Below, piece by piece: positions 12,690-54,600 of a stretch of DNA of 64,000 bases. The position numbers were made by a program, and so were the translations under genes. This stretch comes from Anadara kagoshimensis. Taxonomy: Eukaryota > Mollusca > Bivalvia > Arcoida > Arcidae. The DNA is taken from the NCBI GenBank assembly GCA_021292105.1, contig CM037869.1:28721536-28785535 (forward strand), read 5' to 3'. Position 1 is the stretch's first letter, and each line of letters starts with the position of its first letter. The notes below the pieces were generated by a model that had not been told where the DNA came from, did not search any database, and worked only from the letters and a program-made list of their open reading frames with translations.

Positions 12690-12760
12690 CAATTAAACTG
12701 GAAATTTTGCAGTCTTATATACTTGTTTAAAACTCCCATCTACATTCAAGAACCAATAAA
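12690..12760 (-). promoter_or_regulatory. Core promoter of the zinc-finger gene, copy 3
   Basis: On the minus strand an ATTGG (CCAAT box, 12757-12753) lies 32 nt before TATATAAG (12721-12714), and transcription would start about 30 nt further, near 12690. The same boxes at the same spacing occur in copy 1. The downstream first exon ends in a strong GTGAGT donor, which makes this the likeliest active copy. Confidence 0.65.
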
Positions 12761-13229
12761 ATAAAGAGACCATACTAAAACAATAAATTATACTCCTCCT
12801 ACTTTTAAACATCCAATCCAATGTATACGCCTAGAGGGATTAGTGTACCTAAAAATTAATTAAAACATTTTTACTAATAAAACCCAATAATAAGAATAAC
12901 ACTTTGAAAAAGGTGTAAATTAAAAAGATAACTATCTTCCTGGTAATCCACTTGACTGATGAATTAATGTGTATGTACAAAAGGTAAATAGCCAGAGGGT
13001 CTTTACATGAAGTTCAGGTGTTAATTAATATTTTAATTAGTGTTAATCCTAAAGAATTTTAAATATTTCTTTCATAAATAATCAGTAATGCAGTTATTCT
13101 TTGTTCTAATTAATTAAAACATAATATTCTGAAAAAATAAGAATATTCAATTAAAATGAATTAATGAATTTCTAAATAAATTTTAATTGATATATTATGA
13201 TTCATTCTATCGTATTGTTAAATGTAAGA

Positions 13230-19200: not shown

Positions 19201-19400
19201 CAGTTACTTATCGACAATTTGATCTTTATCAGAGCAATAAATACTGTTGAATTTATGGCCTAAAATGATGTAAAACTTTGAACATTCTGCATCACATTTG
19301 ACCAGTATAGAGTTCATAAAAGATCTGACATTTTGAAAAAGTTTTTTGAAGTAATTAATTACATTATGTTAAATTTTGTTAAATGTAATAAACAGTTTAC
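13230..19400. repeat. 189-bp AT-rich satellite array, about 33 units
   Basis: The unit includes AACTTTATCTGAGCAATAT, then TTGATTTTATGGCCTAAAAT, then TTAGACCGGTATAGGGAAAA, then CTAAGATCTTACATTTTGAA. Successive TTAGACCGG marks fall about 189-190 bp apart in the core. Units at about 13.43-15.59 kb are very similar to one another, and those toward 19.4 kb are increasingly diverged with indels. There is no open frame. The array lies immediately upstream of the zinc-finger gene promoter. Confidence 0.9.
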
Positions 19401-24542: not shown

Positions 24543-24788
24543 ATGGAAGCAGTTGAGGATATCTGGGAAACAATGGAAAAGGGCTATATCGAAACTTCAA
24601 AGAACATTCTCGGAGTAAAGAAAAGAGGACATAAACCATGGATAAGTAAAGAGTCCTGGAAACTTGTTGATGAACGAAAACAAGTAAAACAGCAACTAAA
24701 CAACAGCAGATCCGAAAGATTGAAAGAGAACCTAAGATCAAAATATAGTAGAATAGACAGAGGTAAAGTCCAACATTCGAAAAGATAG
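24543..24788 (+). pseudogene. LINE C linker region, frameshifted from the RT
   Basis: Encodes a basic linker (KPWISKESWKLVDERKQVK) of the type preceding RT in LINE ORF2 proteins. The next frame opens at about 24760 and continues into the RT, so a one-base indel near 24755-24770 separates them. Confidence 0.7.
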
Positions 24789-24846
24789 AAGAAATTGGAC
24801 AGAAGACCTAATAGAAGAGGCAGAAACAGCAGCCAATAGTGGTCAT

Positions 24847-29477: not shown

Positions 29478-32400
29478 CTGTGATGTTATATAAAATGAAG
29501 AAAACAAATTCATTTACAAAACGATACCCAAAATACAAATGATCACTTTGGTAGCTCAGTTGGTAGAGTACTCGCTCCGTAATTTGGAGGTCAGAGGTTT
29601 GAGTACCGATCGGCATTACGAAATGAAAGTCATGGTTCTTTTGGATGAGAACTTAATTAATCGAGGTCCCGTGTCGCGGTGGGGTTGGTATGATAAAGAA
29701 CTCTGTGGTGTAATGCCATCAGCACAAAATTTCTGCACCTTCGCCTATAGATGGCGACGTATCAATATAAGTGAAATAATCTTGATTGGAAAAACACAAT
29801 TATTCAATTCAACTACCCTTTCGGAGCACCATGGCTCTCTTTACTGGTTGAAGTTCGTATTAAAACTCATTTTCCAGCTTCAAATCTTTTACCTCCCTTT
29901 GCTATTGTGATTTGGACATGGATTGGTATATTTTTAATTTAAAGGTAGATCGACACCATATGCATGGTTCTCGATTTGAAATGTCTGCTTTTATGTTTGT
30001 AACTGTGACATGCATGTGATCTTCAGCGCCTTTCGAATTTAATACCGTCGAACAAAATATCAAATATATATATATTCTCACCTAAAACCATCAAAACCAA
30101 AATAAAGGATTGTTTGTCCGACATATATATCTGTCCATCCTGATGATATATATTGATTTAAGCTAAACCAAGATATACTTGTAGTACCAGCACCATAGAA
30201 ATGTACATTTGCTTTAAGAACGCCAAGTTTATACATCTCTATCTTTACCTGAAATAAGCAATTCAGTGAATTAGGATCCAACGCAAGCAGATTCTTTTTT
30301 TTTTTAGTAATTTGCAATTATGTTCAAAGGGCCATAACTCCGAAGGAGAATAAACAAACCAAATCGGGTTAACGATATAAGCATTTTCTATCTATGTATA
30401 TACTTTGTACCAAGTTTCGTAAAAAATTGCTTCATGGTTTTGAAGAATTATCGCAGACAAGAATTTTGGACTGATGGAAAGAAGGACTAAACTCGAATTT
30501 AATATCCCCATCTATATCAAATAGAAATATCTATGTAGCGTGGCTTGCTAAATTGATTTTTCCAATGAGGGAAAAACACAGGTCATATTAGTATTATTAT
30601 TTCTAAATCTGTTTTAGTTTTGCAACACTTGACAGCCGTTTCGGAATACAAATCCTTATCAGTAGTATTTTGGGACAAAAATTGTGTATTTTGTATTGTC
30701 TCCTTGACACGGATAACATATAGGCCGGGCAAAATCTAATGGAAACGAGTTGACACGGATAACATATAGGCCAGACACAATCCAATGGCAACGAGTTCAC
30801 ACGAATAACATATAGACCGGACGCAATCCAATGGCAACGAGTTGACACGGATAACATATAGGCCGTACGCAATCCAATGGCAACGAGTCGACACGGATTA
30901 CATATAGGCCGGACACAATCCAATGGCAACGAGTCGACACGGATAACTTATAGGCCAGACACAATCCGATGGCAACGAGTTGACACGGATAACATAAAGA
31001 CCGGACACAATCTGACAACGAGTTGAGACGGATAACATATAGGCCAGACAACGAGTTGACACGGATAACATATAAGCCAGACGCAATCCAATGGCAACGA
31101 TTCTGTTTTGCGTAATAGGTGTGACAGGTATACAAACATTCGTAATGATATATTATATAATCGATACGTCAGTCGTTGTTGATAGATGTCAGTCCCCTAT
31201 TTACAAAAATAAACTGGTCCAAAAACATAAACACTCTTCCATCAGATCGTATTGACAAACAACATTGACCTGTCCGTTTGAACTTTCAATAGGAATACTT
31301 ATATAGAAGAATCCACTTAATACATATGCCATCAGATCGTACAAACAACAATGACCTGTCCGTTTGAACTTTCAAAAGGAATTCTTATATAGAAGAATCC
31401 ACCTAATATATTTTTATAAGCACTCTGCCATCAGATCGTATTGACAAACAAAATTGACTTGTCCGTTTAAACTTTTAATAGGAATACTTATATAGAAGAA
31501 TCCACCTGATACATTTTATAAGCACTCTGCCATCAGATCGTATTGACAAACATTAATCTGTCCTTTTGAACTTTCAATAGGAATACTCATATACAAGGAT
31601 CCACCGGTACCTGTTTAGTGTTCTCATTATGTATGCAAAGTAAACCAGTGTGATCCCTATACATGAATGAATTCGTCCGTAATAAATATATAAATAAAGG
31701 TCAAATGGACAGGTCAAAATATTTTGCCTATACACGGCCTTTACGGAATTTCTAAATGTTGGGGTATACAAACTTTTGTGATGATATATCATATAATCGA
31801 TACGTCAGTCGTTGTTGATAGATCAGTCCCCTATTTACAACAATAAATGGTCCAAACACATATAGTCCAAGAGATCATGGCTAAAATCCGGGTGAACGAG
31901 GCCAAAAGGTTTGAAGGTTGATTCTTGTAGGAAAATGTCCCTAGTTACTGAAAACCCATTTCTTACGCGTCAAATCGTTTCCGATTTTTTAATCAGAAAC
32001 AGTTTTTGAAGAAAAGCCTCTGCAAATGTTAAATTTTGGTAAAAAATAAAAATTCCAGATTTTGAAGCATTTTGTGGCAAAAACAACACAAAAATGTTCA
32101 TTCTATCTTTCATTGTGGACACACGATAGATTAAAATGCAAAACATCCTGACAGTTTTCCGATTTTGTGTCAAAATTTTAAAATAAGCGATAAAATCGAT
32201 GCTGTAAACTGCGTTTTTATCATATCTACCGTCTTTCGATTCTTGTAAATCTGTTGTTTATGCATTAAATATGACAAACTATATATTTTTATAAAGCCTT
32301 GGTAGTGCTGTAGATAAAAATGTTACAAAACTTCGGAAATATGGAACCTTAATACCGTAGCAAATTTTTATGTTTCCCCTACCCCAAAAATACGAAAATG

Positions 32401-35400
32401 TAAAAAATTCATTATTTTGGCCCATGCTTGCCGATAAGTGTTTAAAACAAATCATTATTGTTTGTTACATCTCCCGTCTGTTCCCGACATATTTATAAAA
32501 CAATTATATGCAGAGTGCTTGGTGATTTTATATGAAAATTTGCACTTTTCATGTAACAGTAGTTTGGAAAATGAGTTTTCATTAAATCATTTGTACTCTA
32601 CTTCTTGTAATTTTGTTATATAGGCATTGAATCTCAAGATTTATATATTTCTGTATTGCCATGGTATATTTGAGTCTGACAACATAAAAAACTATCGGAA
32701 ATACCGAAGTTTATAGACGAAACGGATAAATTTATTTCCCCTACCCCAAAATTGAAAAACATGTGAAAATCCATTTTTATGCAATATATGTCGATTTGTG
32801 TTTCTAATGAAGATTTCGAGCAAAAGTACCGGCAACAATGATAAAACAAGCTTCGAGGATTTTAAATATTTGTGAAATGCTTTAGCTTAAGGACAGATAG
32901 GACTAACTAATATAATAAAATGGCTTATTTTATTCATTTATATGTAAAATGCTGTAAGAAAAAAGGAGCTTTGCCTCTCGTATTTTTGTTATTTAGGCAT
33001 TGAATCTCGACTGTTATCTATTGACGTAATTCCTTGACATATAAGAGTCTAATTACACCAAAATCTGTCGGAAATAGCAAAGCTTGTAGATGAGGCAAAT
33101 AAATTTATTTCCCCTACCCCAAAATTGCAAAAAATGTGAAAACCCTGTTTTAGCCAATATGTAACAATTAGTATTTCTAATGGAAGTTTCAAGCAAATTT
33201 GCATGTAAGAATGGAAAAAGAAACTTGAAGGATACAAAAAAATTTACAAAATGCATCATTTCAATGGCAGATTGGTCTAATTATTCATAGAAAAATGCCT
33301 ACTTCTTTCATTTTCAATTCAATGTGCTATGACAAAAAAGAATCTTCGCTGTTTGTATTTTTGTTATATAGGCATTGACTTTCAAATATCAGATATTGAT
33401 TCAATGCGTTTACACTAAAATTATTAAAAACATGAAAATATTTCGGAAATGTCAATTTTGGTAGCTGTCATGAATCAATTGATTTCCCCGTCTCCAAAAT
33501 ATGAAAACATAGAAACCCTCTCCAGGCTAAGAAGTCATAGCTTACCTTTTTGCATTAGAAGAAGAAATATAAAAAAAATTGTCATATGAATTCACAAAAG
33601 GGGATACTAGTATTTGAGGCATGTATGTAAATAATAGTACAAATGTAAGTGAACGGATATGTTTTCAGATTGGTAAAAAAGCAATGTCATGAACCATATG
33701 CATGCGTTTAAATTCTACTCTGTATTCATAGAATGACAAGAAGAACACTAGCAATTCGGTAAATTACTATACTTGAAAAGTTACAGTATGAATGCCGCAT
33801 TCAAGTTAAGAAACATACTAGATCACAACTACAAATATAGAATACAGGGTCAAGTATGGAAAGTGAGGGTGAAAGGCATGGATGAATTTTATGTTGAACC
33901 ACATTTGAATAAAACACATCGTAACTATTAAAACAACGACTGGACCCTCTGGCAAAAGACTAAAAAGTCAACTGATAGAAATCCAAAATATTTGCAAATA
34001 AGACAATGCGCAAAAATAATTCTGTAAGTGTTACGCACTCTAAATATTTAAAATAATCAACACTATGTTTTTTGGAAGGCAGTGTCAGTCAGTCTTCGGA
34101 CGAATCCTTAAAATCATCTTCAAAATTACAAACCATTTACTTGGACATGCATAAAAATCTACACCCTTCCTCTTAAAATGATTAAAGACACATTAAGGCG
34201 ACACAGGTCTGTTTGTCGAACAGTACCTGATGGGATGGCAGAGAGTGGTTACTATGATCAGCTCTTCTTTGGTTTCTGTTAATCTCTAACAATAAATTCC
34301 CCCGTGGGGAACCCGGGTTAGAATAGGTCCCCAGTACCTCATGCTTGTCGTAAAAGGCGACTCAAATGAGGCATTCTGTTTGCCGTGGAATGCAATCCTT
34401 GATGGTGGAGGACGGGATTCTGGTGATTGAGGATCGTGTAGATTGCGGTTTGCTCTGACCCAACACATCACTTTGACCCTTACTTCATCTAGAAGGACGA
34501 TTGGCATCGGCCCGTGTCCAATCAATCGGCTGGTCACGCACATGCCCTACAGGCAAGGCATTTCTATTTACCCCCAAAAATCCTCTATTTTTACTTTTTC
34601 TTTTTCATAACCTTAGTATTTCCCTTGCCTGTAGAAGGCGGTGGCTCATGGGTCAAATCTGGTCACTTTGTGATGTTCGATTATATCTCTTAACTTGGCA
34701 TTCATGAATTATTTACTCGCTAAATCTTTCTGAATGTCGACTTATCATTGTTAATCGTGAATTTATATTTGATCATCACAATTTTACTATGGTGTATATC
34801 TTCTTTGTAGTCCTTGGTGCTGTTCCGAGTTGGTTTCCCCGGAACATTCAGCATTGCCCTTGGTTGGCACTCCGGATTGGCGGGTGGGGAGCAAGGAGGA
34901 TGAAAATCCCACATCTTCAATATGGGTACCAAAACAAATATTTCCAATAGTTCTTCTAAAAGATTGAGACAGGAGAGTGATGAAGAGTCTGATGTCTTTG
35001 TTGCTTGGTCAAGGTTTGTCGTAGTTCAATCCTCTACTGACCAACCATTAAAAATAAATCCTTTTGTAGTTAGTAAAGCAGTTAAAGGCATTGCAGGAGA
35101 TGTAGCAGACATTAAAAAATTACGCTCTGGCTCTCTCCTAATAGAATGTAAAACTCGACAACAGTCAGTTAGTTTACTCGCGGCAAAACATTTTGCCAAT
35201 ATTCCAATTAAAGTGACACCTCATGGAACCTTAAATTCCAGCAAAGGTATTTTACGTGATAGAGAGCGTTCAATGTCTGAGATGAGCGAGTCAGAAATTG
35301 CATCTGAACTTGCTCCTCAGGGCGTTATTCAAGTACGACGTTTCTCTTTCAAAAAAGATGGGTCGCTTATACCTTCAAACACCTATTTGATAACGTTTTC

Positions 35401-38115
35401 GATGCCTTCCCCACCAAAGGGGATTAAAGCTGGGTATTACAATATTAAAGTAGAGCCATTTATTCCTAGGCCTCTAAGGTGTTACAAATGCCAAAAATTC
35501 GGTCATGGCTCGAAGGCATGTAAATCTGTTGATGTTTGTTGTCGCTGTGGTGAAAAGGGTCACCAAAGCAATGGTTGTTCAAATCCTCCTAAATGCGCCA
35601 ACTGTAAAAATAATCACATGGCTTCCTCTAGGGATTGTCCCATATGGAAGCGTGAGTACGAGATTAATAAACTAAAAGTTAACAAAAATATCACTTTTCC
35701 TGAAGCCAGAACTCTGTACTCACAGACCCAAAGTGCTTCAGCTTCATATGCTTCAGTTGCTTCTGGGTCATCTTCTAAGAAACTTATCTCTGTTGCTTGT
35801 CAGACAGACTTTTCATCTGTTATTGATATAAACGCTAAACAATCAACAAAGTCGGCAGAATCTTCATCAATCATGAATGATAAACAAAATTTGACCAGTA
35901 ATACTAAAGGCAACAAAACTAACTCTTCATCTTCAAATAGTAAAAATACTCAAAATACACAAGCAAAGACTCAAAATTCACAAGCAAAGTCTAAGAAACA
36001 AAATATTGATTCAAATAAACAAATTGCTCGGGAGCAAAAGTCTGCTCCTGCTTCCTCTGATACAGATGCTTGTTCGCAAGCTTCATCAAAACCAGTATCA
36101 AAGGAAGCAAAATCTGGAAAGGGTAAACCCGCTCCAGTTAATACTAAACCAAAATCAGGAAAGAACGAGCAAGTCTTATATGTTCCTGATACAAGTCCCG
36201 ATGCATTGCTTCGGAAAAACCCAATATCAGATTCCCCAAATAGATATGAAGCACTGGAGGATGAATCCAGTTCATCCGATGAAAATGCTTCATCAATGCG
36301 TACTGATGAAGATGGTTTCACTCAAGTACGTAGGGGGCGAACTAATCGGTGGCGTGGGTCTGGACGCCATCGCCGTCGTAGTCTTTCTGAGGACTGTGAC
36401 ATGGAAACTACACCGTCACAGATTTCCCCTGTTCGCCCTCCTAATAATGGGTAATCCAAAAATAATACAGTGGAATTGCAGAGGTTTTAAAAATAATATT
36501 GATGAATTAGCAGTGTTGGCACAGGATTTTAATCCGGTTGCATTTTGTCTTCAAGAAACGCATATTAAGGAATCCGACAATGAAGTAAAATTTCGTCATT
36601 ACAAACCATATCACCTTTATTCTCCTAATGCAGACAGAGCTTCAGGAGGTTCTTCTATTTTTATTCGAAATGGGATAATCCATAGTCCCATATCTCTTAA
36701 TACCAATCTCCAAGCCATTGCAGTTCGCATAACGCTACAAATAACTATAACATTATGCTCAATATATATTCCTCCATCATCAGCATTATCTCTCACCGAC
36801 ATACAGAATTTAGTTGAACAGCTACCTAAACCATTTCTATTAGTTGGTGATTTTAATGGACACAACCCTCTTTGGGGAAGTTCGCGCCTTGATAATAAAG
36901 GCAGAATAATAGAAAACTTGATGTCTAACAATGATCTATGTATATTAAATGACGGGTCTAAAACATTTCTATCTGATGCGACTGGTACTTATTCAGCTTT
37001 AGACCTGTCGCTATTGGATCCTAATATTTTAAATGATTTTTCATGGAAAGTCCATGATGATCGTTGTGGTAGCGATCATTTTCCAATAATAATGGAATAT
37101 ACATCCGGATCAAATGATCTTTCTATTCCTAGATGGAACTTTGCAAAAGCTGATTGGAATCAGTTTCGAAATCTCTGCGCGGAAAAGATTTCTATCGAGA
37201 GATTTGAAAATGAAACTGATAAAATTCAGAGTTTTACCGATGTTCTTATTGAAATTGCTAATAACTGCATTCCTAAAACCTCTGCAAATCCTCGTATTCA
37301 TAAACCATGGTACAACGAAGAATACAAACAAGCTAGGAAAAGTCGAAAACAAGTCGAGAGACAATTTAATAAGTCTCCTACACAAAAAATTTACAGTTAG
37401 TCCGTTTATTTCGAGCAAAGGCTCGTAGAACAGCTAAAAATTGCAGAAGAGATTCTTGGAGAAAATATGTCTCTAAAATCAATTCTCGCACTCCATTAAA
37501 TAAAGTTTGGAATATGGTGCGCAAAATAAAAGGCAAAGGTTCTTCAGATTCTGTTAAACATCTTAAAATAAATGATACAATTTTAACATCTGAAAAAGAT
37601 ATTTCAAACAAAATAGCTGAGACGATATCTAAAAATTCGTCATCAGTTAATTATACATCAGAATTCCAGAAACATAAAAACATACAAGAAAGGAATAAAT
37701 TATCTTTTAAATCTGACAATACCGAGGATTACAATGATATATTTTCATTTGAAGAACTCCAAAATGCTCTTTCGAAGGCACATGATACGGCAGTTGGTCC
37801 TGATGATGTACACTATCAACTCCTTAAACATTTGCCTTCACAAGACCAACTCCCTCCTTTAAGGGTCTTTAAGGAATCCTTAAAGATCCTTAAAGATGTC
37901 CTTAAAGATCCTTAAAGCCTCCTTAAAGACCCCTTTAAGGACCACCATCTTTTTTAAGGATCTTTAAGGCTTCCTTACAGATCCTTAATGGAACTGAAAT
38001 TTTAAGGATCTTTAATGCGGCTTTAAGGATCTTTAAGGATCACCCTGACATACACATGTATTTAAATGATATAATGGTGTTTTTTCAACCACCCTGAATT
38101 GGCTAAGAATGCACC

Positions 38116-38155
<40 letters not shown>

Positions 38156-38704
38156 TTTGGTATATATTACACAAAAATAATTGGAGAAAAACGCGATTAA
38201 AAATAAATGTCCGGTGATAAAATTTCATGATTGTTTTCAAAGTAATTTATTTATTTTTTATTTATTTATTTATTTTTATTGATAATCTATACTGCTCCAA
38301 TTATTATGTACCAGCTCTAAATTGATTCAATGTACAACTTCTTATTTATTTATTTATTTATTTATTTATTATTTATTTATTAAACTAAAAAAAGTGTAGT
38401 TTTGACTATTTATCATTATGGATTTATGCCCATAGGTAATAAACAGATCATGGTTCCTAATTGATGATCATCAACATTTCCCCGGTATCTCATCAACAAC
38501 TTACCTAACTAATTGATAACAGAAGCAAATTCAAACTCATTTTAACCAGACGATAGTATATTCTACCTGAAAAATTTACCATATGTTGTTAATCTCTTTA
38601 ATTACCTAGATGGATTTGAATTTTAATAGAATTTGATGATTAATCTACATGAGTAGTAATGTTAGGGATACTTTAGATACTTTTTACCAATTGTTATTTG
38701 TGTG

Positions 38705-38743
<39 letters not shown>

Positions 38744-38774
38744 ATATTTTTAAAAACTTTAATAAGTATATGAA

Positions 38775-38820
<46 letters not shown>

Positions 38821-39215
38821 TAGGACAGAGCGAAGACTTGAACATCATCAGTTTTTAAACTACCATTATTTGATATTTCTTATTTCATGACCTTGAAATG
38901 TGCATTCATATATAAATAAATAAATAAATAAATAAATAAACAAATAAATAAATAAATAATCAAATAAATAAATAAATAAATTATCATAAAAATTAATAAA
39001 TAAATAATCAAATAAATATATAAATAATTATATAAATAAATAAATTACCAAATAAATAAATAAACATTCATACAATAAATAAATAAATAAATAAATAAAT
39101 AAACAAACCACAATTTCATAGACAAAACTGGTAGATTCATTTTGCACTATCTTCTTCATGTAATAATTTCTCGATCGATCCAGTAAAATAACTTGTATTC
39201 TCTGATCAAGTTGTT

Positions 39216-39267
<52 letters not shown>

Positions 39268-42200
39268 CGGAGCTGAGAGTTGTCTATCGGAACTTTTTCC
39301 CACAAGTGAAAACTATAAGCATGATTTTCTAATCATAGAATAGGTCCGCAATCCAAGTTAACGAATTTCGGGCTAATAAAGTTGTGATTTATAATGAAAC
39401 AATTAAAAGAAAAAACCATTTATATCATCGGCATTTATCGTTTTAATTTGTTTTCTTGCCGAAAATGGGGTTCTCTGTGTGTTTCCGTTTCATTAATAAT
39501 CCTAGAACTGACAGCCTCAATATAACTAGCAAAATCTTGATCTCACTGTCTTGGTTCACATCTTTAGGGAAAATCTAGTGTGAAAAAACTCGCTTGTCGA
39601 ATATTGGTTCTAATCTCAATGCACTTCGATTTCTTTCACTATCCTTGAACTTAAAGTCTCTACACAAGACTATACAATTTTGTTACAAACTGACAAAATA
39701 TTAAACTGGGACAGACCATAATCTCAGAAAATTTGTCAGTTCGCTCAGGTTTTACATTCTTGGTCATTCTAGAATTCTTATTCATTGAATCAAATAATGA
39801 TATAAGTGAAATAATCTTGACACAGGAATGAAACTCTATACTCTGCTATCCCGTTATCCTGATTATGTTGAGAAAAAAGTAAAAAAGTTTTCTCCAGAAA
39901 TAAATCAAATGGTGTTGTTCAAACACAAAAAGATATTAGCAGTCTGCAGCTGACGTTGGAATATTGTCATATCTAGGATAGAAAGAGAGAGAGAGGAGAG
40001 ATAATTTGGATTTGCAGTGTCGTGTACTTTTTTCGTTCTGTTTAAAAATAATTCAAAAATGGTAAATCATGCAGTGTCAGATCCAGCGGGATGGAGGTAG
40101 GTGGGCGGGGAGGGGGCACCCCAACATTTGCCCCTGCTTTCCGACTTTTTTCCCTCTCGATGGTGCGCATGCGTGAGTAACAGCGGGTTGTTTAAATTTC
40201 TTGCTCTACATTTATCCTTCAAAAACATGTTTTTTTGGATTTTAAAATTACTGAAAATGTACTGGAGTTATATAAATGACATTAGTGTTCAATGAATTCG
40301 AAAGAGGAGCAAAAAAATTCAAAGAAAAAGAAGAAATCTGGACAAAAACGAAAGAAAGACAGTCAGAATGTGAGTAGTAATAGCGATAGTCAGATTAATA
40401 CAAAGGTACACGTACAGGGTGTTAACGACGCTCATATTAACGATACATGTTTACAAACTATATCAACCCCTGTTCCTTGTTTTATGCCATCAAGGACACT
40501 AGATATGGCTCAGAATTCAACACATAATCAATCAACGCCATTAAATTTAAATTTTGTACCGCCAAATATGAGTTATGGTGTTTCTCCAGTTGGTGCATAC
40601 CCTGTTCATTCCCAGTCTTATTCTCAAGGATATTCACAATTTGATAATATCAGCTATGGGGAGAAAATGGATGTGCTCTGTACAAAGCTTGATTCTGTGT
40701 TCAAGAAACTAGAAAAACTAGATATTATAGAACAAAGACTACAAAACTTTGAAACTTCTATAAATACCGTAACAAAGGATGTGAAAGTATTAAAGGATCA
40801 AATGAAAGACATTGACACTAGTTTAAATTTCATAAATGACAAATTTGAAGAAAATATCCAAAGAGTTGATGAAATTACTTTATCTGTAGAGGAAATGAAA
40901 GCTGAAAATGCGTCACTAAGAGAGGAAATCAACGGTCTTAATGAAAAACATGTTGATCTACAGGCAAGAAGTATGAGAGACAATCTTATATTCACGGGCT
41001 TTCAGGAACTAGAAGAAGAGAATACAGAGGAATTATTGAAAGATTTTATAGTGAAAGATTTAGAAATAGGAAAAAATATAGAATTTCATAGAGTACATAG
41101 AATGGGTAGAAAATTCCAAACCGGACGCCCCAGACCAATAGTGGCGAAATTTGTTAATTTCAAGGATAGGGAAATGATTAGAAAATCCGCACCTGAAAAA
41201 CTAAAGGCCTTGAACAATCACAAATACGGTGTAAACGAACAATTTCCAAAAGAAATAAATGACAGAAGGAAAGCTTTGTATCCACACTTAAAATCTGCTA
41301 AAAGGAACAATAAAAGGGCAAATTTAGTATATGACAAACTGTACATCGATGGGCGCCTCTTTATTCCAGATACACGAGAAACTCAACAGAACGAAACACC
41401 TAGACGCACAACTCAGAACAACGTTGGAGCCTACCACGGGAGTAAACAACGTGCAAAGGGAAATAACTCGCGCAACAATCGCGACTAGGATTACCACGGA
41501 GGAAAAACAAATAACTTTTTATACAATGTAAATATAAACAATAGTACCGATTCACGAAGTGATTATGACAATGTCTACAAAAACGTTAAAATCTTAACTT
41601 TAAATGTTTGTGGATTAAATCGTCGTCTGCAATACCCGGAATTTCTGGATTTAATACAAAAATATGACATATTATGTTTCGTTGAAACAAAAACAGATGA
41701 TTGTGACGAATTTAACATTCCTGGATATGAATTTAAATCAAAGAACCGAAGTGTTATATCAAAAACTCGTTCTGGTGGAATTATCTTAGGATATAAAAGT
41801 TACCTGTCGGATTATATTATTCCTTTGGAAACTGATTGTAAATATATTCTCTGGTTTGTGCTTAAAGGTGATATAATTAACTCCGAAAAGGATATATTGT
41901 TCGGAATTACATACATTCCACCTGAAGGAACAAAGTACAGTTCAAAAGACGCTTATAGCGATATAGAAAATGAATATACGACCTTAAACTGTAAGTATGA
42001 TATTATATGTCTTACAGGTGACTTTAATAGCCGTGTTTCTAACTGTAGTGACTTTATTAATGATATCGATTTGTCAAATTATGAAATAATAACAGAAGAT
42101 CCGTTTTTAGATGGTAATGCAGATCTACAAAAACTTGACAATTTAAATTTTCCACGTATTAGATCTAATAAGGACTTAAAGAAAAATAATTTTGGTAATA

Positions 42201-45200
42201 ATTTATTACAGTTTTGTAAAAACAATAATTTATTTATTCTCAATGGACGTGTTGGTAATGATAAAGGTGTTGGAGATTACACAACATGTAATTCAACGGT
42301 GATTGATTATTTTATTGGAAATGTAGATTTCTTAAATATTGTTGAAAATTTTTGTATACTTGAATTTACCAAACTGTATTCAGATGTTCACTGTCCCTTA
42401 ACGTGTAATATAACTTGTAATATATTGCTTAATGATACTGATTGTAATGTGAATACTCATGGAGATGAAATGTTAGATAACATCAAACCGTTTAATATAA
42501 CTAAATGTACAGATTTTTGTAATAACATTAGTGTTGATAAGATTGTATCTATTTTTGATAATTTGAACATGGTTGATGTAAATACTATTGATAAAAAAGA
42601 ATTAGATGTTTTATTTACACAAGTTTGTGATGTTTTAGTTGAAGCTGCTAAGCAAACTTTTGGTACATTTAAAACTATTAAAAATAAAGGTACATCCATT
42701 GCCAATAAACGTAAATCTAAAGACTGGTTTACAACTGAATGTTTTGTAGCTAGGAAACAGTTCCGTAAAACACAAAGAATGTATAGAAAATATAAATCGA
42801 ATTGTTTTAAATTAGAAATGCGAAATGCCGAGAAACACTATAAGAATGTTATGGATTGTAGTATTAAGAATTATAGAATTGCTTTACAAAGAAAGATTAA
42901 AAAGTTGAGATCATCTAATCCAGGTGAATATTGGAAACTAATAAATAAGAAAAAAACAAATGGTACACAGAGTAATATTTCAGTTCATGATTTTTACACA
43001 CATTTTAAAAATATAAATACCAGTACTGATTCTATGGGTGGGGATGATATTTTAAATAATTATACTAATTCAAATAATGATGGTAATATTTTAAATGAAT
43101 GCATCACTGGTGATGAAATTATGTCATGTGTAAGAAATCTAAAGACTAATAAGTCTTCGGGAATAGACAGAATTTCCAACGAATATATTATATCTAGTAT
43201 CGACGTTATGTTGCCTATATATGTTAAATTATTTAATATTGTATTAGAAACAGGTATTATACCAGAATCATGGCTGGTTGGTAATATTATTCCAGTTTTT
43301 AAAAATAAAGGTAGTATTAATGATGTGAATAATTATAGACCTATTACTTTGCTTAGTTGTATGGGTAAACTTTTTACTTCTATTATGAACATTAGACTTA
43401 ATAATTATGTTGAAGAGTTTGAAATTTTATGTGAAAATCAATCTGGATTTAGGAAGAATTATTCAACTGTTGATAATATTTTTATTTTACATTCTTTAAT
43501 TGAGTTATTACAACTCAAGAAAAGAAAGCTTTATTGTGCTTTTATAGATTTTCAGTCTGCTTTTGATAAAGTATGGCGTTATGGGTTGTGGCAAAAATTA
43601 TTAAGATATAACATTACTGGTAAATGTTTTAAAGTTATTGTTAATATGTATAGAAATACAAAATCTAGAATATCTGTAGATGGTCATGTTTCTGAGTTCT
43701 TCTCATGTAACATTGGTGTACGACAAGGAGAAAATTTATCTCCTCTATTATTTGCATTGTACATGAATGATCTTGAACAATTTTTTATAGACAGTAATAT
43801 ATCAGGTATCAAGTGTATAAGTGAAGAATTAGCAGATGAACTTAATATTTATTTAAAGTTGTTTCTACTTTTGTATGCGGACGACACTGTGTTAATGTCC
43901 GAATCTATATCTGACCTCCAGTGTCAATTAGATAATTTTTCTATTTATTGTAAAATGTGGAAATTAACTGTTAATATTAAGAAAACAAAAGTTATGGTTT
44001 TTTCAAAAGGTAAAGTTCCAAATAATGTTTCTTTTCACATTGATGGTATAGATTTAGAAATAGTAAAGGAAATAAAATATTTAGGTGTGTTTTTTAGTAG
44101 ATACGGATCATTTTTATGTACAAAAAAGTATTTAGCTGAAAGAGGTACAAAAGCTATGTATGGGATTATTAAGAAAGCTAGAACTTTAAATTTATCAATT
44201 GACTGCCAAATAGATATGTTTGATAAAATGGTTTTACCAATTTTGTTGTATGGTTCAGAAATATGGGGTTTTGAAAAATTAGATATATTAGAAAGGGTCC
44301 ATTTAAAATTTTGTAAACTTATTTTAAAAGTTAGAAAAAGTACGCCAAGTTTTATTGTATATGGCGAATTAGGCAGGGTACCATTATATGTTTATGTCAA
44401 AACTAGAATTATAAGTTACTGGTCAAATATTATTGAGAAAAGTGATACGAAATATACGTCAATTATTTACAAATTATTATATAACTATTTTTCAAATGGT
44501 GTTAAAACTAAGTGGATTAGCTCAGTTGAAGCAATTTTTCAAGAATGTGGTATGAATAATATATGGCTATTTCATAATTATAGCAACCGTACCTGGTTAA
44601 TTAAATGTGTTAAACAAAAATTATATGATCAATTTTTACAAAGTTGGTATACAAATTCTACCTTTTCAAGGGGAATCTCTTATAATTTATTTACTCATTT
44701 TGATTTTAAACTACAATTGTATTTAACTTCAGATCTCTCTGATAGAAACAAAACTACTTTAAGTAATTTTAGATGTAGTAATCATAAACTACCTATTGAA
44801 GTTGGACGTTGGAAAAATATCCCAAGAGAGAATAGATTATGTGAACTTTGTAACACCGATTTAGGTGATGAATATCACTATATTTTGTGTTGTACTGCTT
44901 TGTCTGCAGAAAGAAGTATGTTTATTCCTAAATGGTATATTGTCAAACCAAATACTTTAAAATTTTATTCATTATTCAACAATACAAATTTATCTCTACA
45001 AATTAAATTAAGTAAGTTTATAAAGATTATTAATGAAAGAATCGGTACTACCGGTCCTCCGGGTTAACATAATGTGTAATTGTATAGTTATGTTATGCTG
45101 TTACTCATGCATTATTTGTTATATATATGTGTGTTTATATATTCTCAATTTGTAAAATTGCAATATGAGAAATAAAGAAACTTGAAACTTGCTTACCGCA

Positions 45201-45574
45201 AATTGTCAAGCAACTAGTGGATGGACCAGTTAATTAGTGGTACTGATTAATTAATTCGTGTACAGGTAGGTAATTGCAATCAGAGGATGGTGTAATGTAC
45301 CAGTTCGCTGAGGTATGAAAGAATTCATATAGTGCTGACCAGTCTTAGGTGATAATGTTATTTACCTGATCACTTAGGCATGAAAGAACCCAGTTAGTAT
45401 TAGTAAATGACGTTAATTAGTAATACTAATTAAGACACTTCTGTCTTGTCAGAAAGCATGAATTTTAAACTGGGCTGTTATCAGTACTTCAAAAATAATT
45501 CTTATTCAAGGACAGATTCCATAAAGAGTGATTCCATTAATCATAAATGAATATTGGGACCAAGGGTCAGGGCC

Positions 45575-45605
<31 letters not shown>

Positions 45606-48600
45606 CTAATTAGAATGGTACATTTTTAGCACATAAGATTATCTTTTTGTATATTTTTATAGCGCAAAGTCCTATTTTCATATAAAAGTCCCAATTTTTG
45701 TACATTTTTTGTACATTTTTTTAATTTTTAATTGGTTTTAATAGATAAATTCCATCTCATTTGACTTTTTATTCTATCCGTCCGTTATTGGCTTTAGGGA
45801 ACAAATCTAAAATGATAAGTGCTATTTTCTGGTAAAAAGGATTCTTGTGTGTTGCACCATTATACTGATTATTTAGTATAATAATGTAATAATTTAATTA
45901 ATATAATAAAATTAACTTGAATGTTCAGATGGATGTCATATAGATAATTTTAAACAAGTGTGGAAAAAAGGGAGGAAGGAGACCTTCCACTTCGGTAGCA
46001 GCCAGCTCGGTAGAGTGTCGACTGTCCGCTCCAGAAGTGGAAGGTCGCGGGTTTGGTCTCTGGCCGGGTCTGATCCAAAACTTGAAAAAGGGTAGTGACT
46101 ATCCACTCGGATCCGCTTTTGAGTATGACAAAGGTAATATTTTTTTTACCAGATTTATAACAGTAGGAAATGTCGCTAGTTCTACTGTTTCAATTTGTAA
46201 AGAGTACTATTATTATAATGTTTAACATCATGTGCACCCCCTTTTCTCTCTCTCTCTCTCACAGTGAATTGAATTAATTTCTGAAATTATTTTTTTAACA
46301 TTCTCACTGTTTCCCTCATAAAACAGTCATTTAAGTTAAATGCAAGATTTTGAAGGATAGATTAAGATTCAAGATAACAAATTATCATTAAAACTCGTCC
46401 TTCCATTTTGTACAGATTATTAAATGTCGCTGGTACAATATTATAGTTGTTTATCAAACAAGGAAATAAGTATTGGTATTACAACAAAAATGTAACTAAA
46501 TTATAAAAGACAATTTTAAATAAAATTTACTTAAAATTATTATTTTAATTTCAAGAAATATTGAAATATTTTAATAAAAAAAGCAGTAGTATGATTAAGA
46601 TTATACAAATAGGAATGGATATCTGATCGATAATTGATCTTTATAAAAGTGATGTTTGCCAGTCAGATAAATAAGTGTATTACAGGTAAAGGTTTCATAT
46701 GCCCATCTTCCTTTGATCAGAAATCTTAAGTCAGTTAAATTAACCTAAAAATTATTCCTCTCAAGAATGAAAGAGCAAACTATAATAATAATTATTATAT
46801 AATAATAAAATATCTTTTAAATGGAGTAAAACATTTTATTTATATATTTTATTATTAAATCTGAAAGATTTAGAGCTAGTCACGTGATCCTTAGGCTACC
46901 GGGTACTTATATAGTTTAAAAATATTAAGCGCAAATTCATGTCTTCCGTGGCCTAATGGATAAGGATGTAGAGTCATGAATGGATGTAACCTGGGGAACT
47001 AAGGGTAGTGAGTTCAAGTCCCGCTGCGAGCGAAATTAGGTAAGTAAATTTGTAATAAATGATATTAATTAATGTGTTTTTCTTTATTTGTGATTTCAGG
47101 ACTACTTGCAAAACAACCAAAATTAGCATAAATTGATAAAGAAAAATGATTAAATAAATATGTTTATTTTTTATAAATTTACAAATTTTATAAATAAATA
47201 AAAAAAAAATAAAAAAAAAATAAAATAATTTTTTTTAAATAAAACAAAATAAAATAAAAACAGTGTAAGAGTATAATAAGTTTAATAATTATATTTAACA
47301 TCACATTTATATAAATTTAAAATTTAAAAAAATGTAAAGAAATTTGTTTTCTGTGTTTATTAAACGAATCCTTAAAGATCCTTAAAGCCGCCTTAAAGAT
47401 CCTTAAAATTTCAGTTCCATTAAGGATCTTTAAGGATGTCCTTAAAGAGACCTTAAAGACACATTTAAGGTCCTTAAAGACCCCTTAAAGATCCTTAAAG
47501 CCCCATTTAATGAGTCTTTAAGGGGGCTTTAAGGATCCTTAAAGGTGACTTTTCTTCTTGTGCTTCTTCTTGTCTTTCTACTCTGTTAGATATATTTAAT
47601 GATATATGGCAGAGTGATAATTTTCCATCATCTTGGCACAAAGCTGTCATTATTCCTATTCCAAAGCCAGGAAAGGATCACTCTGATCCATCTAACTATA
47701 GGCCTATTGCCTTAACTAGCTGCGTTTGTAAAACCATGGAAAGGATGATCAATAATAGACTCGTTTATTATCTTGAGTCTAACAATCTCCTCTCGCATAT
47801 TCAGTGTGGTTTTAGGCGTAACAGAAGTACTTTGGATCACTTAGTTCGCCTTGAATTATTTATTAAAAATGCCTTTATAAACAAACAACATGCGGTCTCT
47901 ATATTCTTTGACCTAGAAAAGGCATATGATACCACTTGGAAATATGGTATCCTTAAAGATCTTCATGAAATGGGTCTTAGGGGTCATACTCCTAATTTTA
48001 TTAAAAACTTTCTCGAAAATCGAGAATTCAAAGTTCGGTTGGGGTCAACCCTCTCTGATGTCTTTGATCAAGAGATGGGTGTCCCGCAAGGTAGTATTTT
48101 ATCTGTAACTCTTTTTAGCATTAAAATAAATAGCTTAGCTAAAGTTTTAAACAATAGCATAGATGGATCTCTCTTTGTTGATGACTTTGGCATCTCCTGT
48201 AGAGGGACACATATGCATGCTATTGAAAGGCAACTTCAACTTTGCCTCAATAAAATACAAAAATGGTCATTAGAAAACGGGTTTAAGTTTTCAAAAACTA
48301 AAACTTCCTGTATCCATTTCTGTAATTAACGCAAAATGCATAATGATCCTGAACTTTATATCAATGGCAGTATTATTAAAGTCGTAAAAGAAGCTAAGTT
48401 TTTAGGAGTCTTATTTGATTCCAAATTATCTTTTATTCCCCATATTAAAAGTCTCAAGGCTAAATGTCTTAAGGCATTGGATATTTTAAAGGTTTTATCC
48501 AATACACACTGGGGTGGTGATCAACCAACGTTACTTCATTTATACAGGTCACTTATCAGATCTAAACTGGATTACGGGTCTATTATTTATGGATCTGCCC

Positions 48601-51600
48601 GTAAATCATATTTAAAAGACCTTGATACAATTCATCACCAAGGTCTACGAATATGTTTGGGAGCTTTTAAAACGTCTCCAATTGATAGTTTATACGTGGA
48701 AGCTAATGAACCTCCACTGCATTTAAGGCGTACTAAATTATCTCTGCAATATGCCACAAAATTATTTGCAAATCCATCAAATCCGGCATTTCACTGTGTT
48801 TTTAATCCTCCTTATCAAGAGTTATACAATAAAAAGGTTAATGCTATTGCACCTTTAGGAATACGTTTAAAACCACATTTGGAGGAATGTAATTTACAAC
48901 TAGATCTTATTAAAAAACACAAATTAACAGATGATCCGCCTTGGCTTCTTGATAAACCAGAAGTCAATTTGGATTTAACAAACTATAAAAAGTCAGAAAC
49001 AAGCCAAGACGTTTATCAACAGGAATTTGCATTTATTAAAGATAGATATAGTCGTTTAATTCCTCCAATTATTAGAGAGGAACTACGACAGTGGCATCCA
49101 ATTTATACTGATGGATCAAAAACTGCTGGTCGGGTATCAGCAGCCGCAGTTATTGGAGACGAAACAATAAGTATTCGCCTTCCAAATGAAAGCTCCATAT
49201 TCACAGCTGAGGCTAAAGCAATATTGCTTGCTTTACAGTTTATTTCAAAATCGCCTCATAACAATTTTATTATATGCTCCGACTCTTTATCTGTCCTTCG
49301 GGCAATAAAGAGCAGAAATTTTGATCACCCTCTAATCAGTGAAATTCTGGAATTGCATACTTCAATTACATATGCAGTTTCAGATTTTAATAAAATAATA
49401 CATTATTGTTGGTTGCCTAGCCATGTTGGTATTAAAGGCAACACAAAAGCCGATTCAGCTGCTAAAGCAGCATTGTCTAAAAATATAACTTCTTGCGTAA
49501 TTCCGCATACTGATTTAAAACCATTGATATACAATTATATCAATGATCAATGGTCAAAACATTGGAATAGCCAAGAACGTAATAAATTATTTTCAATTCA
49601 GCCTTGTCTGGGATTTACACCTTTGTCCCAGTACAATAGGCATGAAAGTATTGTTCTTCGGCGCTGTAGAATCGGCCATAGTTATTTTACACATTCTTTT
49701 ATATTAAAGGGAGAACAACCTCCCCAGTGTATCCCTTGTCAAGGTCAACAATCTATCCAGCACATTTTGCTGGATTGTGTTGACTTTGCACATACAAGGG
49801 ATACTTTTTATTCAGCATTATCAATGCAAGATCTTTTTAGTAATGTCAGTGGACATCAAATTTTAAACTTCCTTCGGGAAATTAACTTGTATCATAAGAT
49901 ATAATTGTTTTAATATATATAACCCAGTGTTTTATTTATAAATTGTCTGTGATATAACTGGTTTTTATCAGTTTAGCAATAGTTTTATTCAAAATTTATT
50001 TGTTGTTATTTTTAATTTTACATTTTATACTTTGTGTTATAGATACTATTGTATCTTACTTTTTCTAGCCGCGAATAGCTGCAATAATGCTGATGCGGCT
50101 TTAAACAATAACTCACTCACTCTAACAATAAATTAGTTTGTTCAATTGCCTTCCAAACGGTCTGAATTGAAATGACTTTTCTTGTTACTACTTTCACTCT
50201 CAATTTTGATTTCACATGTGGTGACAGGAGGCGGTTACCCTTCCCGAGCACCCAGATTTTTCCCCTGACAATGTTTACGTGTTTAACTTTGCCAGTTTTT
50301 AAACTTCGTTTTTGTTATTGTGATATAATAATTATGTTTGTGTTTATGTTTACTGATTTACACAGCGCATTTAATCAGTTCTCTATTGCCTCAATTCAAA
50401 AATTTTTTTCATGACATTGATCTCTTTCTATTTGTCAGTTGAACACTTTACTCATATCATCATACCCATTGTTCCATCGATCTTTGCAACTCCGATAATG
50501 TTAGCAATTCACTTTTTCAATCCGTCCTTTGCTGTCCATATCTACTTATTTTAGCTAAAACATAAGTATCTACGGGGTTTATATTCCTAATCCGAAAGCA
50601 TTTTTTATATCCGTGATTCTCCTTTTTTTCTGGTTTTCTATGACCTGGGCTATATTATGTTGTAGTGTTTACCTATTATTCGTGATTATATGGCAAAAGA
50701 AGTTTACTAAACCATATTTGTTATTACTAAAACCCCGTTTATCAAAGATTGCAGCCACATTTTACATAACTTTGCAACTTTTTTTCTGGAGCCATCATTT
50801 TATTAAGAATTGACCTAATGTACTATTTCAGTCTCTGCTCAAAAACGTGTATTCTTAAAAGAACGTGGCACTGGGCACCTGGTAACAGGCTTATGGTTGA
50901 AAGGTGTCCAATACAACTTTGTTTTATCATTATAATATGGCCAGGCAATTTGTGATGTGATAGCTATTAATAATTCCTTTAAAAGATACAAAGATGGAGT
51001 TATTGGACATAGAAATTTTGTCAGTTTGAAGTGAAATTAAAAATGTGTGCAGACTTTTTAAAATAAGATTTAACGGAGACCGACAATGTACATTAGGTCA
51101 CTTCAAAATTAAATGATTCCACAAGAATAAATTGCAAAGTTTTGTAAAATGTGGCTACAATCTTTGATGTCTATCAAAGATTGTAGCCACATTTTACAAA
51201 ACTTTGGTAATAATGAATATGGTTTAGAAAGCTCCTGGATCTGATTGAACTTTATCGAATGGAGATATGTCTTATAAAACCCAATAGCTTTATATAAAAC
51301 CATAACCAGAAATGCCTTACACTAAGTTTTACCATATTTTAATATTATGTTTAACTAGAGATGACATTATTTGCAATTATTATTTTATAGTATTAGGTTG
51401 TTCGAAAAGATATGTGTATTCTTAATTTTCACACGTGGCGGGTGTAATAGCTAAACAGGAGGTGCTTAAGGAGTACCCCGCCAAATTTGCTGTTTTGGAA
51501 GATTTTACCTTTGTGGGGATTGTGATCTTGACAAGGATTGGTATCTTTGTTTTTGATTTTCAAGTTTAAATATGAATATTTCACAATTTCTTTCCTTAAT

Positions 51601-54600
51601 TTAAAAAAAAACATTTTGCTATGACTTTGAACCATTAAAACATAACTTGCTTAAAACCTTCACCAAAAGCATACATGGCCTAGAAAGTTTTTTTCACACT
51701 TTTGGGGTAGGGGAAATAAATTTATTGGCCTTATTTACAAGCTTTGCTATTTCCGACAGATTTTGGTGTTGTTAGACTCTTATATGTCAAGGAATTACGT
51801 CAATAGATAACAGTCGAAATTCAATGCCTAAATAACAAAAATACGAGAGGCAAAGCTCCTTTTTTCTTACAGCATTTAACATATAAATGAATAAAATAAG
51901 CCATTTTATTATATTAGTTAGTCCTATCTGTCCTTAAGCTAAAGCATTTCACAAATATTTAAAATCCTCGAAGCTTGTTTTATCATTGTTGCCGGTACTT
52001 TTGCTCGAAATCTTCATTAGAAACACAAATCGGCATATATTGCATAAAAATGGATTTTCACATGTTTTTCAATTTTGGGGTAGGGGAAATAAATTTATCC
52101 GTTTCGTCTATAAACTTCGGTATTTCCGATAGTTTTTTATGTTGTCAGACTCAAATATACCATGGCAATACAGAAATATATAAATCTTGAGATTCCATGC
52201 CTATATAACAAAATTACAAGAAGTAGAGTACAAATGATTTAATGAAAACTCATTTTCCAAACTACTGTTACATGAAAAGTGCAAATTTTCATATAAAATC
52301 ACCAAGCACTCTGCATATAATTGTTTTATAAATATGTCGGGAACAGACGGGAGATGTAACAAACAATAATGATTTGTTTTAAACACTTATCGGCAAGCAT
52401 GGGCCAAAATAATGAATTTTTGACATTTTCGTATTTTTGGGGTAGGGGAAACATAAAAATTTGCTACGGTATTAAGGTTCCATAATTCCGAAGTTTTGTA
52501 ACATTTTTATCTACAGCACTACCAAGGCTTTATAAAAATATTTAGTTTGTCATATTTAATGCATAAACAACAGATTTACAAGAATCGAAAGACGGTAGAT
52601 ATGATAAAAACGCAGTTTACAGCATCGATTTTATCGCTTATTTTAAAATTTTGACACAAAATCGGAAAACTGTCAGGATGTTTTGCATTTTAATCTATCG
52701 TGTGTCCACAATGAAAGATAGAATGAACATTTTTGTGTTGTTTTTGCCACAAAATGCTTCAAAATCTGGAATTTTTATTTTTTACCAAAATTTAACATTT
52801 GCAGAGCCTTTTCTTCAAAAACTGTTTCTGATTACAAAATCGGAAACGATTTGACGCGTAAGAAATGGGTTTTCAGTAACTAGGGACATTTTCCTACAAG
52901 AATCAACCTTCAAACCTTTTGGCCTCGTTCACCCGGATTTTAGCCATGATCTCTTGGACTAATAAACACTCTGCTATAACATCGTACACGACCTATACCA
53001 AATTTCTGAATATGGGGGGTATTCATATTAGTTTATGTATAACCTCCATGATGCCGACCTATACCAAATTTCTGTTTTTAGGTGGAGAGTATAAATTTGT
53101 ATTAGTTGATGTATTACCTCCGAGATACCGACCTATACCAAATTTCTGTTTTTAGGGGTAGGTTATTTGTATTAGTTTATGTATTACTTCCGTGATACCG
53201 AGCTATACTATATTTTTGTTTTTAGGGGGTATTTGTATTAGTTTATATATTACCTCCGTGATACCGAGTACCGACCAATCGTCTACAAGACTAGTCCTGT
53301 AATGCTTTGTACACGTGTCTCTATAATCCATAGATGTACACCCATTCTCCACACTGAAGTCTGTTTCACTTGACGTACCCGCTGACACCCAACTATCACG
53401 TACAGAATCACCGATTGCTGTCTTGAATCGTGCCAATAATATCCAATCTCCATATAATGTATCTATAATTGAATATTAATGATAAATGATGTGGGATTTG
53501 TTTAACAATCATTTATCAACTAGGACTCTATCTTAAATTTGAAATATTTAAAACAACAGTAAGATGCAATAACTTTAGAGAAATGTACAAAAGGATAATA
53601 AAAGTAGATAATGAAACGGGCACTGAACGGTCAATTAAAGATTGCATTTCGTGTACCCAAACCATCACGTACACTCACATCAAATATCCAGTGTTCCATT
53701 TAACACTAATAACACGACATTTCTATGCTATCTTAAATCTATATATAAATACAGATTTTTATTGACGTTTGATGACAAAATTTTATACCGTAAAATCAAA
53801 CATTGCTATAACACTTTTAATTCCATTATTCGATCAAAAACAAACATACTAATCCATGTCAAAATCACAATATAGTATCGAAATTCTACTCTTTTTTTTG
53901 TCATAACAACTGTGTAAATGTTGACAATTTATTTACACAGATACTTAACGTAATCTATATGTAATAATATACAAGACAAATTATTCAGTTAATCTTTTTA
54001 ACACTGTGGTAGCTCATTTGGTAGAGTGCTCGCTCAGTAAGTGGAGGTCGCGAGTTTGGGACACCTGTTACGCCTGATCCAATACTTAAAAGCGGTTAGT
54101 GATGGTTCTCTCGCCATGAAATTGGCATTACGAAATGAAAGTCGCAGTTTTTCGGATGGAATTTTCAACTGAACGAGGTATCGTGTACCGGAAGGCGTGG
54201 CACGAAAAAAGAATCTTGCTGAATTAATGCCACCAGTGTAAAGCACATGTACAATTTCTGCACCTTCATATATAGACGTCTCGATATAAGTGAAATATAC
54301 TTGACTGGGCATTAAATACCATTATGCAACTCAACTATTTATTTCTCATATACGTATTGCAATACTATACTAATATCTATTTTCTAATACAAACAATCAA
54401 ACTTGATGCAAGCAATTAATGCTTCTTATATGCGGGTCAGGGTTGTCAACTAGAATATTTTACAAAAAATCGGTGAATAAAAGTCTTTTATTATCATTAG
54501 CGACACTGTATTATATTTCGTAATGTGATCAACTACATTTTATCCTCCAATTTCCTCTGAATATGTTAAATGCATTACATATAATACAAGTGGTTATTTT

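What the first reader, a model, noticed from the sequence alone, without database searches (positions are those of the whole stretch)
37836..47565. A 9.7-kb CACTA-type element with decamer subterminal arrays splits a LINE
Seen: ends CACAAGA...TCTTGTG, CTT on both sides, about a dozen CCTTAAAGAT-like decamers in both orientations near each end, and exact restoration of the LINE A reading frame when the element and one CTT are removed. Known: CACTA/EnSpm elements have CAC ends, 3-bp duplications and short subterminal repeats bound by their transposase. No transposase was found, so the copy is non-autonomous and unusually large.
Basis: partly seen in the sequence, partly recalled or inferred. Interest (0 to 1): 0.8.

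Follow-up and report, generated by a model that had tools for sequence, protein, structure and literature searches.

The report
Young clam CACTA transposon with nested LINE
A jumping gene without its own enzyme, one of a young family of several hundred copies in what is probably a clam genome, landed inside an older retrotransposon and was later invaded by another; a likely source of its enzyme sits elsewhere in the same genome.

Summary
The element is 37839-47562, with CTT duplicated on both sides. The host genome holds 316 copies of its left 26 bp (up to 2 mismatches; reversed control 0). All 22 other copies whose two ends I paired have exact 3-bp duplications. Among 34 end pairs in a positional listing, 27 span 4.4-5.4 kb. 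The window copy is 9.7 kb because a complete 5,032-bp LINE (LINE B, 40160-45191) is nested in it; four fully read copies lack it. The family body has no long reading frame. LINE A, the interrupted host, is full length with a 15-bp duplication; 116 of 120 listed relatives run ungapped across the insertion point. One of 60 other left ends sampled carries a different interior with a 907-codon Transposase_21 (tnp2) frame, the CACTA transposase family; its other end was not found. Near two of three sister transposases examined lie CAC-starting ends with arrays of another unit, CCTATAAG instead of CCTTAAAG. Best reading: a non-autonomous CACTA family moved in trans, a new member of a known kind.

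The parts
34299..50119 (+). LINE A, full-length host non-LTR retrotransposon (about 6.1 kb without the insertion): zinc-knuckle-like ORF1 (by eye), endonuclease, reverse transcriptase, RNase H; frame change near 37.4 kb and stop at 48327
   Evidence: Pfam endonuclease, RVT_1 and RNase_H; ORFs; 15-bp duplication at both edges
34284..34298 (.). LINE A target-site duplication, 5' copy, CTCTAACAATAAATT (3' copy 50120-50134)
   Evidence: one search found 13 of the 15 bases twice; the other two read from its flanks and
37836..37838 (.). 3-bp target-site duplication CTT, left
37839..47562 (+). CACTA-type non-autonomous element, this copy, including nested LINE B (4,692 bp without it)
37839..38040 (+). 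left terminal inverted repeat with decamer array (11 exact CCTTAAAG/CTTTAAGG cores)
47368..47562 (-). right terminal inverted repeat with decamer array (12 exact cores)
38041..40159 (.). family interior, left part: non-coding, microsatellite-rich
   Evidence: 94-95% identical in L040 and L041, in two pieces at 93-94% in L042 and L043; no long ORF
40160..45191 (+). LINE B, nested, 5,032 bp, both ORFs open
   Evidence: absent from L040-L043; the join is read base by base in L040; RVT_1
40286..41485 (+). LINE B ORF1 (400 codons stop to stop; first ATG at 40292)
41489..45064 (+). LINE B ORF2 (1,192 codons stop to stop)
   Evidence: RVT_1 9.9e-38; LINE-1 ORF2p is the best PDB match
45192..47367 (.). 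family interior, right part, with two tRNA-like SINE-type stretches near 45.99-46.10 and 46.94-47.03 kb
   Evidence: shared with L040-L043; SINE assignment by eye only, ARAGORN and Rfam found nothing in the window
47563..47565 (.). 3-bp target-site duplication CTT, right

Best explanation
This is one copy of a young, non-coding, about 4.7-kb CACTA family. Its roughly 200-bp ends carry CCTTAAAG repeats in both orientations, mostly one helical turn apart. A Transposase_21 (tnp2) enzyme made elsewhere in the genome is inferred to bind these repeats, cut at the CAC/GTG termini and reinsert the element with a 3-bp duplication. Order of events: LINE A inserted first; the CACTA element landed in its reverse-transcriptase gene; LINE B then inserted into the CACTA body. 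Shown: boundaries, duplications, family, nesting order, absence of long coding frames, and a transposase frame next to a matching end. Inferred: binding of the decamers, movement in trans, and that this transposase lineage is the one that does it.
For: The left 26-mer occurs 316 times with up to 2 mismatches, 0 times read backwards. The degenerate two-end pattern occurs 557 times against 0. Of 20 further copies sampled at 4.5-5.1 kb from the left end, the right end lay in the stretch in 18, and 18 of 18 have an exact 3-bp duplication that does not extend to 4 bp; 4 of 4 fully read copies likewise have a 3-bp duplication. In all 30 loci (29 distinct flanks by eye, window included) the flank changes at CACAAGA. 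LINE B is missing from 4 of 4 fully read copies. L126 has the same 26-bp end and 19 cores, then a Transposase_21 frame at E 2.5e-17; all 120 listed homologues (of 832 hits) carry PF02992. In 2 of 3 places read near sister transposases there is a CAC-starting end with its own array; that array unit reaches 3 or more per 250 bp in no other of the 154 loci held and never in the window. The right array varies less than the adjacent interior: 6 of 162 against 58 of 509 sites, Fisher p = 0.003, 23 copies.
Against: The partner copy shows only one end in 15 kb, so its transposase is tied to these ends at one locus. Chance neighbours expected among 60 sampled ends, by my arithmetic (genes x 8 kb / 1.115 Gb x 60): about 0.02 if the genome has the 50 places scored, about 0.4 if all 942 first-look candidates are real. 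At the sister places I first looked for CCTTAAAG and did not find an array of it; the other unit came out of a tandem-repeat scan in the same script. The third place (L153) shows neither unit. Against the least variable interior block (16 of 221 sites) the array's lower variation is not significant, p = 0.18. 32 of 100 listed ends have no partner end in the listing. The termini read CACAA, not CACTA.
Confidence: 0.9

Rival explanations
1. A CACTA element that carries a LINE as standing cargo, so that DNA transposition spreads an intact retrotransposon.
For: The window copy does hold a complete LINE with both ORFs open. Five of 34 listed pairs are 7.0-13.7 kb and so probably hold insertions; one of these was read (L129) and its extra ~2 kb sits at another point of the body.
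Against: LINE B is absent from 4 of 4 fully read copies, and 18 others paired are too short to hold it (that stretch was chosen for the usual length, so it could not have shown a longer copy; 2 of 20 stay open). Near-identical LINE B copies exist elsewhere, several 5'-truncated (39 of 8,985 candidates scored); none of nine such places is within 15 kb of an end listed, a list that is incomplete.
Confidence: 0.03
2. Same family, but another superfamily with 3-bp duplications, such as Academ or Zator, which are reported as bivalve-rich.
For: Academ, Sola and Zator appear restricted to bivalves among the molluscs of PMC10294476 (passages). That Academ and Zator make 3-bp or 3-4-bp duplications is recalled.
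Against: The only coding copy found with these ends carries Transposase_21, the CACTA family, and two sister genes have a similar layout with CAC ends.
Confidence: 0.06
3. The arrays are plain tandem repeats without a role in transposition.
For: They are short, degenerate, near-palindromic units, and both ends share one origin as an inverted repeat. Some copies have part of the left array deleted (L111, L138, L148).
Against: They sit at the ends in the copies read; they vary less than the adjacent interior taken whole, though not significantly less than its least variable block; a sister lineage has an array of a different unit in the same place; a 201-bp copy is ends and array alone, with a 3-bp duplication.
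Confidence: 0.1

Closest known systems
CACTA/EnSpm elements of plants
   Same: CAC termini, 3-bp duplication, subterminal arrays of 10-20-bp units in direct and inverted orientation, transposase (PMC8978399, passages)
   Different: Termini CACAA not CACTA; host is an animal; the non-coding body shows no similarity to the partner beyond the ends
Animal TRC elements of the CACTA superfamily (SmTRC1)
   Same: Transposase_21 domain (PMC1636069, passages)
   Different: Those have CCC termini and 2-bp duplications; this family has CAC and 3 bp
MITEs and other non-autonomous CACTA derivatives
   Same: Short copies of 201 and about 212 bp with the same ends exist, as do internal-deletion derivatives
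   Different: The main non-coding form is about 4.7 kb, long for a non-autonomous form (recalled comparison): 27 of 34 listed pairs span 4.4-5.4 kb
CACTA annotated in bivalves
   Same: The disco clam genome paper tabulates CACTA at 8.2% of the genome (PMC11373642, passages)
   Different: The passages seen are a tally, without ends, arrays or transposase

Membership tests
CACTA/EnSpm | Terminal inverted repeats starting CAC (CACTA in plants) | tested here: met
   CACAAGA is where the flank changes in 30 of 30 loci and 18 of 18 right ends found stop at CTTGTG; the searches that found them used these letters. The full CACTA word is not present
CACTA/EnSpm | 3-bp target-site duplication | tested here: met
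   18 of 18 right ends found of 20 sampled, 4 of 4 fully read copies, and the window copy
CACTA/EnSpm | Subterminal arrays of short units in both orientations | tested here: met
   11 and 12 exact cores at the two ends, one elsewhere in the window
CACTA/EnSpm | Transposase_21 (tnp2) transposase in autonomous members with the same ends | tested here: inconclusive
   Transposase_21 frame 3.2 kb inside a matching left end at one locus, right end not found; two of three sister loci have a similar layout with another unit
CACTA/EnSpm | Transposase binds the subterminal repeats | not testable with these tools
   Needs protein-DNA binding assays
Animal TRC type of CACTA | CCC termini and 2-bp duplication | tested here: not met
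   CAC and 3 bp
PIF/Harbinger | 3-bp TWA target (recalled) | tested here: not met
   Duplications include CTT, CCT, AAC, TTG, AAT, ATG
Academ or Zator | Their own transposase in partner copies | tested here: inconclusive
   The only coding partner found is Transposase_21; Academ and Zator genes were not searched for

The most novel reading that the evidence does not exclude
Sister animal CACTA transposases have exchanged their subterminal recognition unit, CCTTAAAG against CCTATAAG, while keeping spacing, orientation and layout. The arrays would thus be a fast-evolving lock that isolates families, and the 4.7-kb non-coding family expanded by holding the lock of a transposase left in one or very few copies.
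Probability: 0.45. Interest if true: 0.55.

Novelty: new member of a known kind. Interest (0 to 1): 0.38.

Why it matters
The family is young, high in copy, cleanly bounded and has a candidate enzyme, so an animal CACTA with plant-like ends can be tested directly. Two related enzymes with two different end arrays in one genome would allow a swap test of what the subterminal repeats do. The locus is also a clear three-layer case for ordering insertions.

Tried and rejected
Rejected: LINE-as-cargo and the unusually large element. LINE B target-site duplication: no convincing one by exact matching; the empty site shows a join of 0-1 bp in L040. Array search outside the host: viral contigs gave one lone match, without an array by eye; genome contigs gave none for a longer pattern. 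Of the 60 left ends read to 500 bp, 49 pass the family-interior score and 11 were flagged: L087 is the partner, L107 and L108 the mini-elements, L111, L138, L139 and L148 were inspected and are internal-deletion derivatives of the family, L119 scored just under the cut-off, and L141, L143 and L144 were not inspected one by one but score like L138 and L139. L153, beside a 55% related transposase, showed neither unit in the 3 kb read. ORF1 of LINE B has no PDB match. Text search for the array motif found no paper; the left-end 12-mer found three unrelated ones, judged by title and abstract. For CACTA in ark clams, 12 of 247 papers were listed; one, on the disco clam, holds both words, and its passages tabulate CACTA for that clam only. 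The sister-end genome count did not complete.
Full report
What is there. The element runs from 37839 to 47562 (9,724 bp), with CTT repeated at 37836-37838 and 47563-47565. Its termini are CACAAGA and TCTTGTG. The outer ~200 bp of each side form one imperfect inverted repeat in register with the ends: 79% over 189 columns, 92% over an inner 78 bp. Within it sit 11 (left) and 12 (right) exact CCTTAAAG/CTTTAAGG cores, against one elsewhere in the window. Counting one-mismatch cores too, neighbours are mostly 9-12 bp apart, about one helical turn, with breaks of 17, 19 and 23 bp.

The host. LINE A is a full-length non-LTR retrotransposon, 34299-50119, bounded by the 15-bp duplication CTCTAACAATAAATT (sequence). 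It has endonuclease, reverse-transcriptase and RNase H domains. It carries a frame change near 37.4 kb and a stop at 48327, both outside the insertion point. Joining its flanks at the insertion, with one CTT, gives a continuous reverse-transcriptase sequence. All 120 listed relatives (of 2,268 hits) cover the point; 116 have no gap near it. One of the four with a gap, P0123, has it at the edge of the checked stretch; the other three were not displayed.

The family. The window lies in a 1.115-Gb assembly of 36 contigs. The left 26-mer occurs 316 times with up to two mismatches and never when read backwards. A pattern covering both kinds of end occurs 557 times, again with 0 backwards. A search with the left 222 bp scored 40 of 830 first-look candidates; the 39 other than the window score alike, and the 29 of them fetched are identical to each other and differ from the window by one base. 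Being the best-scoring, they cannot be used to measure conservation of that end. Four copies read in full are 4,684, 4,689, 4,773 and 4,791 bp with duplications ATA, CCT, TAT and TAC. For 20 more I read the stretch 4,500-5,099 bp from the left end; 18 have the right end there, all 18 with an exact 3-bp duplication and none with 4 bp, lengths 4,632-5,011 bp. That stretch could not show longer or shorter copies. A less selected view comes from the first 100 ends by position: they form 34 adjacent facing pairs, of which 27 span 4.4-5.4 kb, one 201 bp, one 4.2 kb and five 7.0-13.7 kb; 32 ends stay unpaired. In the 30 left flanks, the first duplicated base is T or A in 26, the middle one A or T in 29, and the base before the duplication is C in 16 (two of the 30 share a flank).

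The nested LINE. In the window copy, 40160-45191 is LINE B. All four fully read copies lack it, and in L040 the sequence runs directly from one side to the other. LINE B has two long ORFs in one frame with a reverse transcriptase. Near-identical genomic pieces exist, some 5'-truncated (39 of 8,985 candidates scored), and none of nine such places lies within 15 kb of an end listed. The protein database holds a 1,080-aa relative that differs inside at two positions and in its first residue, read as a start. It is therefore an ordinary LINE that inserted into this copy. Another copy, L129, is 7.0 kb because of about 2 kb of extra sequence at another place.

No coding capacity. Apart from LINE B, the family body has no reading frame that looks like a gene: the longest stop-to-stop frames in four copies are 93-133 codons of low-complexity, array or SINE-like sequence (not scanned against Pfam). 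The family is taken to be non-autonomous.

The partner. I read 500 bp inside 60 further left ends (classified). One, L087, has the end and then an unrelated interior. Two, L107 and L108, are mini-elements of about 212 and 201 bp, both flanked by GGA, that look like one duplicated locus. 49 pass the family-interior score; four of the eight other flagged ones were inspected and are family copies with internal deletions, and the remaining four score below the cut-off but well above the mini-elements. The L087 copy, read further as L126 and L131, has 19 exact cores at its left end and, 3.2 kb inside, a 907-codon frame pointing toward that end. The frame matches Pfam Transposase_21 at E 2.5e-17, above the family's cut-off. 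All 120 listed homologues (of 832 hits) carry PF02992; named ones come from Saccostrea, Tegillarca, Branchiostoma, Lingula and others, with 84-85% partial matches in the ark clam Tegillarca granosa. No right end was found in 15 kb, so the link rests on one end.

The sister test. Among 50 candidates scored of about 940, this transposase has no second close copy; the nearest long ones are 64-70% (C13), 55-68% (C3, broken) and 55% (C11). From the L126 layout I expected an array-bearing end some 3 kb past each stop codon and read 3 kb at each place. The CCTTAAAG array was not there. A tandem-repeat scan showed arrays of another unit at two of the three: at C13 and C3, CACAGGATGAAATGCC followed within about 200 bp by eight exact CCTATAAG cores, 160 of 160 bases identical between the two inside, with 2 shared bases just outside and 117 of 160 mismatches beyond, 4.2 and 3.5 kb from the stop. 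C11 showed neither unit. As a control, CCTATAAG occurs twice in the 64-kb window, never more than once per 250 bp, and of the 154 loci held (299,428 bases) only these two have three or more per 250 bp. So related transposases sit beside end arrays of the same design but a different unit. This supports the CACTA assignment and suggests, without proving, that the unit is what each enzyme reads.

Constraint. In 23 copies, 6 of 162 gap-free sites of the right array vary against 58 of 509 in the adjacent interior (Fisher p = 0.003). The interior is uneven (16 of 221, 17 of 165 and 25 of 123 sites in three blocks); against the least variable block alone p = 0.18. So the evidence for constraint is modest. 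Most interior variants are singletons (46 of 58), as expected of a young family.

Comparison with the known. Plant CACTA elements are described with 3-bp duplications and subterminal units of 10-20 bp in both orientations (PMC8978399, passages). Animal CACTA relatives of the TRC kind have CCC ends and 2-bp duplications (PMC1636069, passages; also PMC4298943, passages). This family has the plant-like combination in an animal. I recall animal EnSpm entries in Repbase with CAC ends but could not check them, so I do not claim novelty of kind. One bivalve survey says CMC types are present across all genomes it analysed and curated two such autonomous elements (PMC10294476, passages; that CMC contains CACTA is recalled); the disco clam paper tabulates CACTA at 8.2% of that genome (PMC11373642, passages). 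The host is probably an ark-clam-like bivalve, inferred only.

Noticed in passing
31863-33134 and 51690-52961: Two 1,272-bp inverted copies, 98.7% identical, flank LINE A on both sides; both begin TAGTCCAAGAG at the outer edge, and the flanks differ beyond it. Possibly a large foldback-type element that LINE A entered.
   Followed up: partly
41480-41640: LINE B ORF1 and ORF2 lie in one frame separated by a single TAG, and ORF2 has no in-frame ATG near its start by eye, which suggests readthrough or reinitiation.
   Followed up: no
9600-19400: Long arrays of tandem repeats with a period of about 190 bp, several diverged blocks.
   Followed up: no
24757-26586: Partial third LINE with RVT_1 and DUF6451.
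   Followed up: no
47551-47579: The element's right end TTCTTCTTGTG resembles the LINE A sequence just beyond it, CTTCTTCTTGTC; the right flanks of 18 other copies do not show this by eye, so probably chance.
   Followed up: partly
L123 about 1797-6800, L125 from about 1527, L124 from about 4836, L128: Copies with long runs of N inside or beside the element, withheld or gaps; not pursued.
   Followed up: no
G000:C7:3784159-5027618: Cluster of family copies on C7, five of which fall into two kinds with like scores and, where inspected, internal deletions; it looks like local segmental duplication.
   Followed up: no
G000, first 100 ends: Right-type ends outnumber left-type ends (58 to 42) and 32 ends are unpaired; three of four unpaired right-type ends read run into N, the fourth is a full copy whose left end misses the pattern.
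   Followed up: partly
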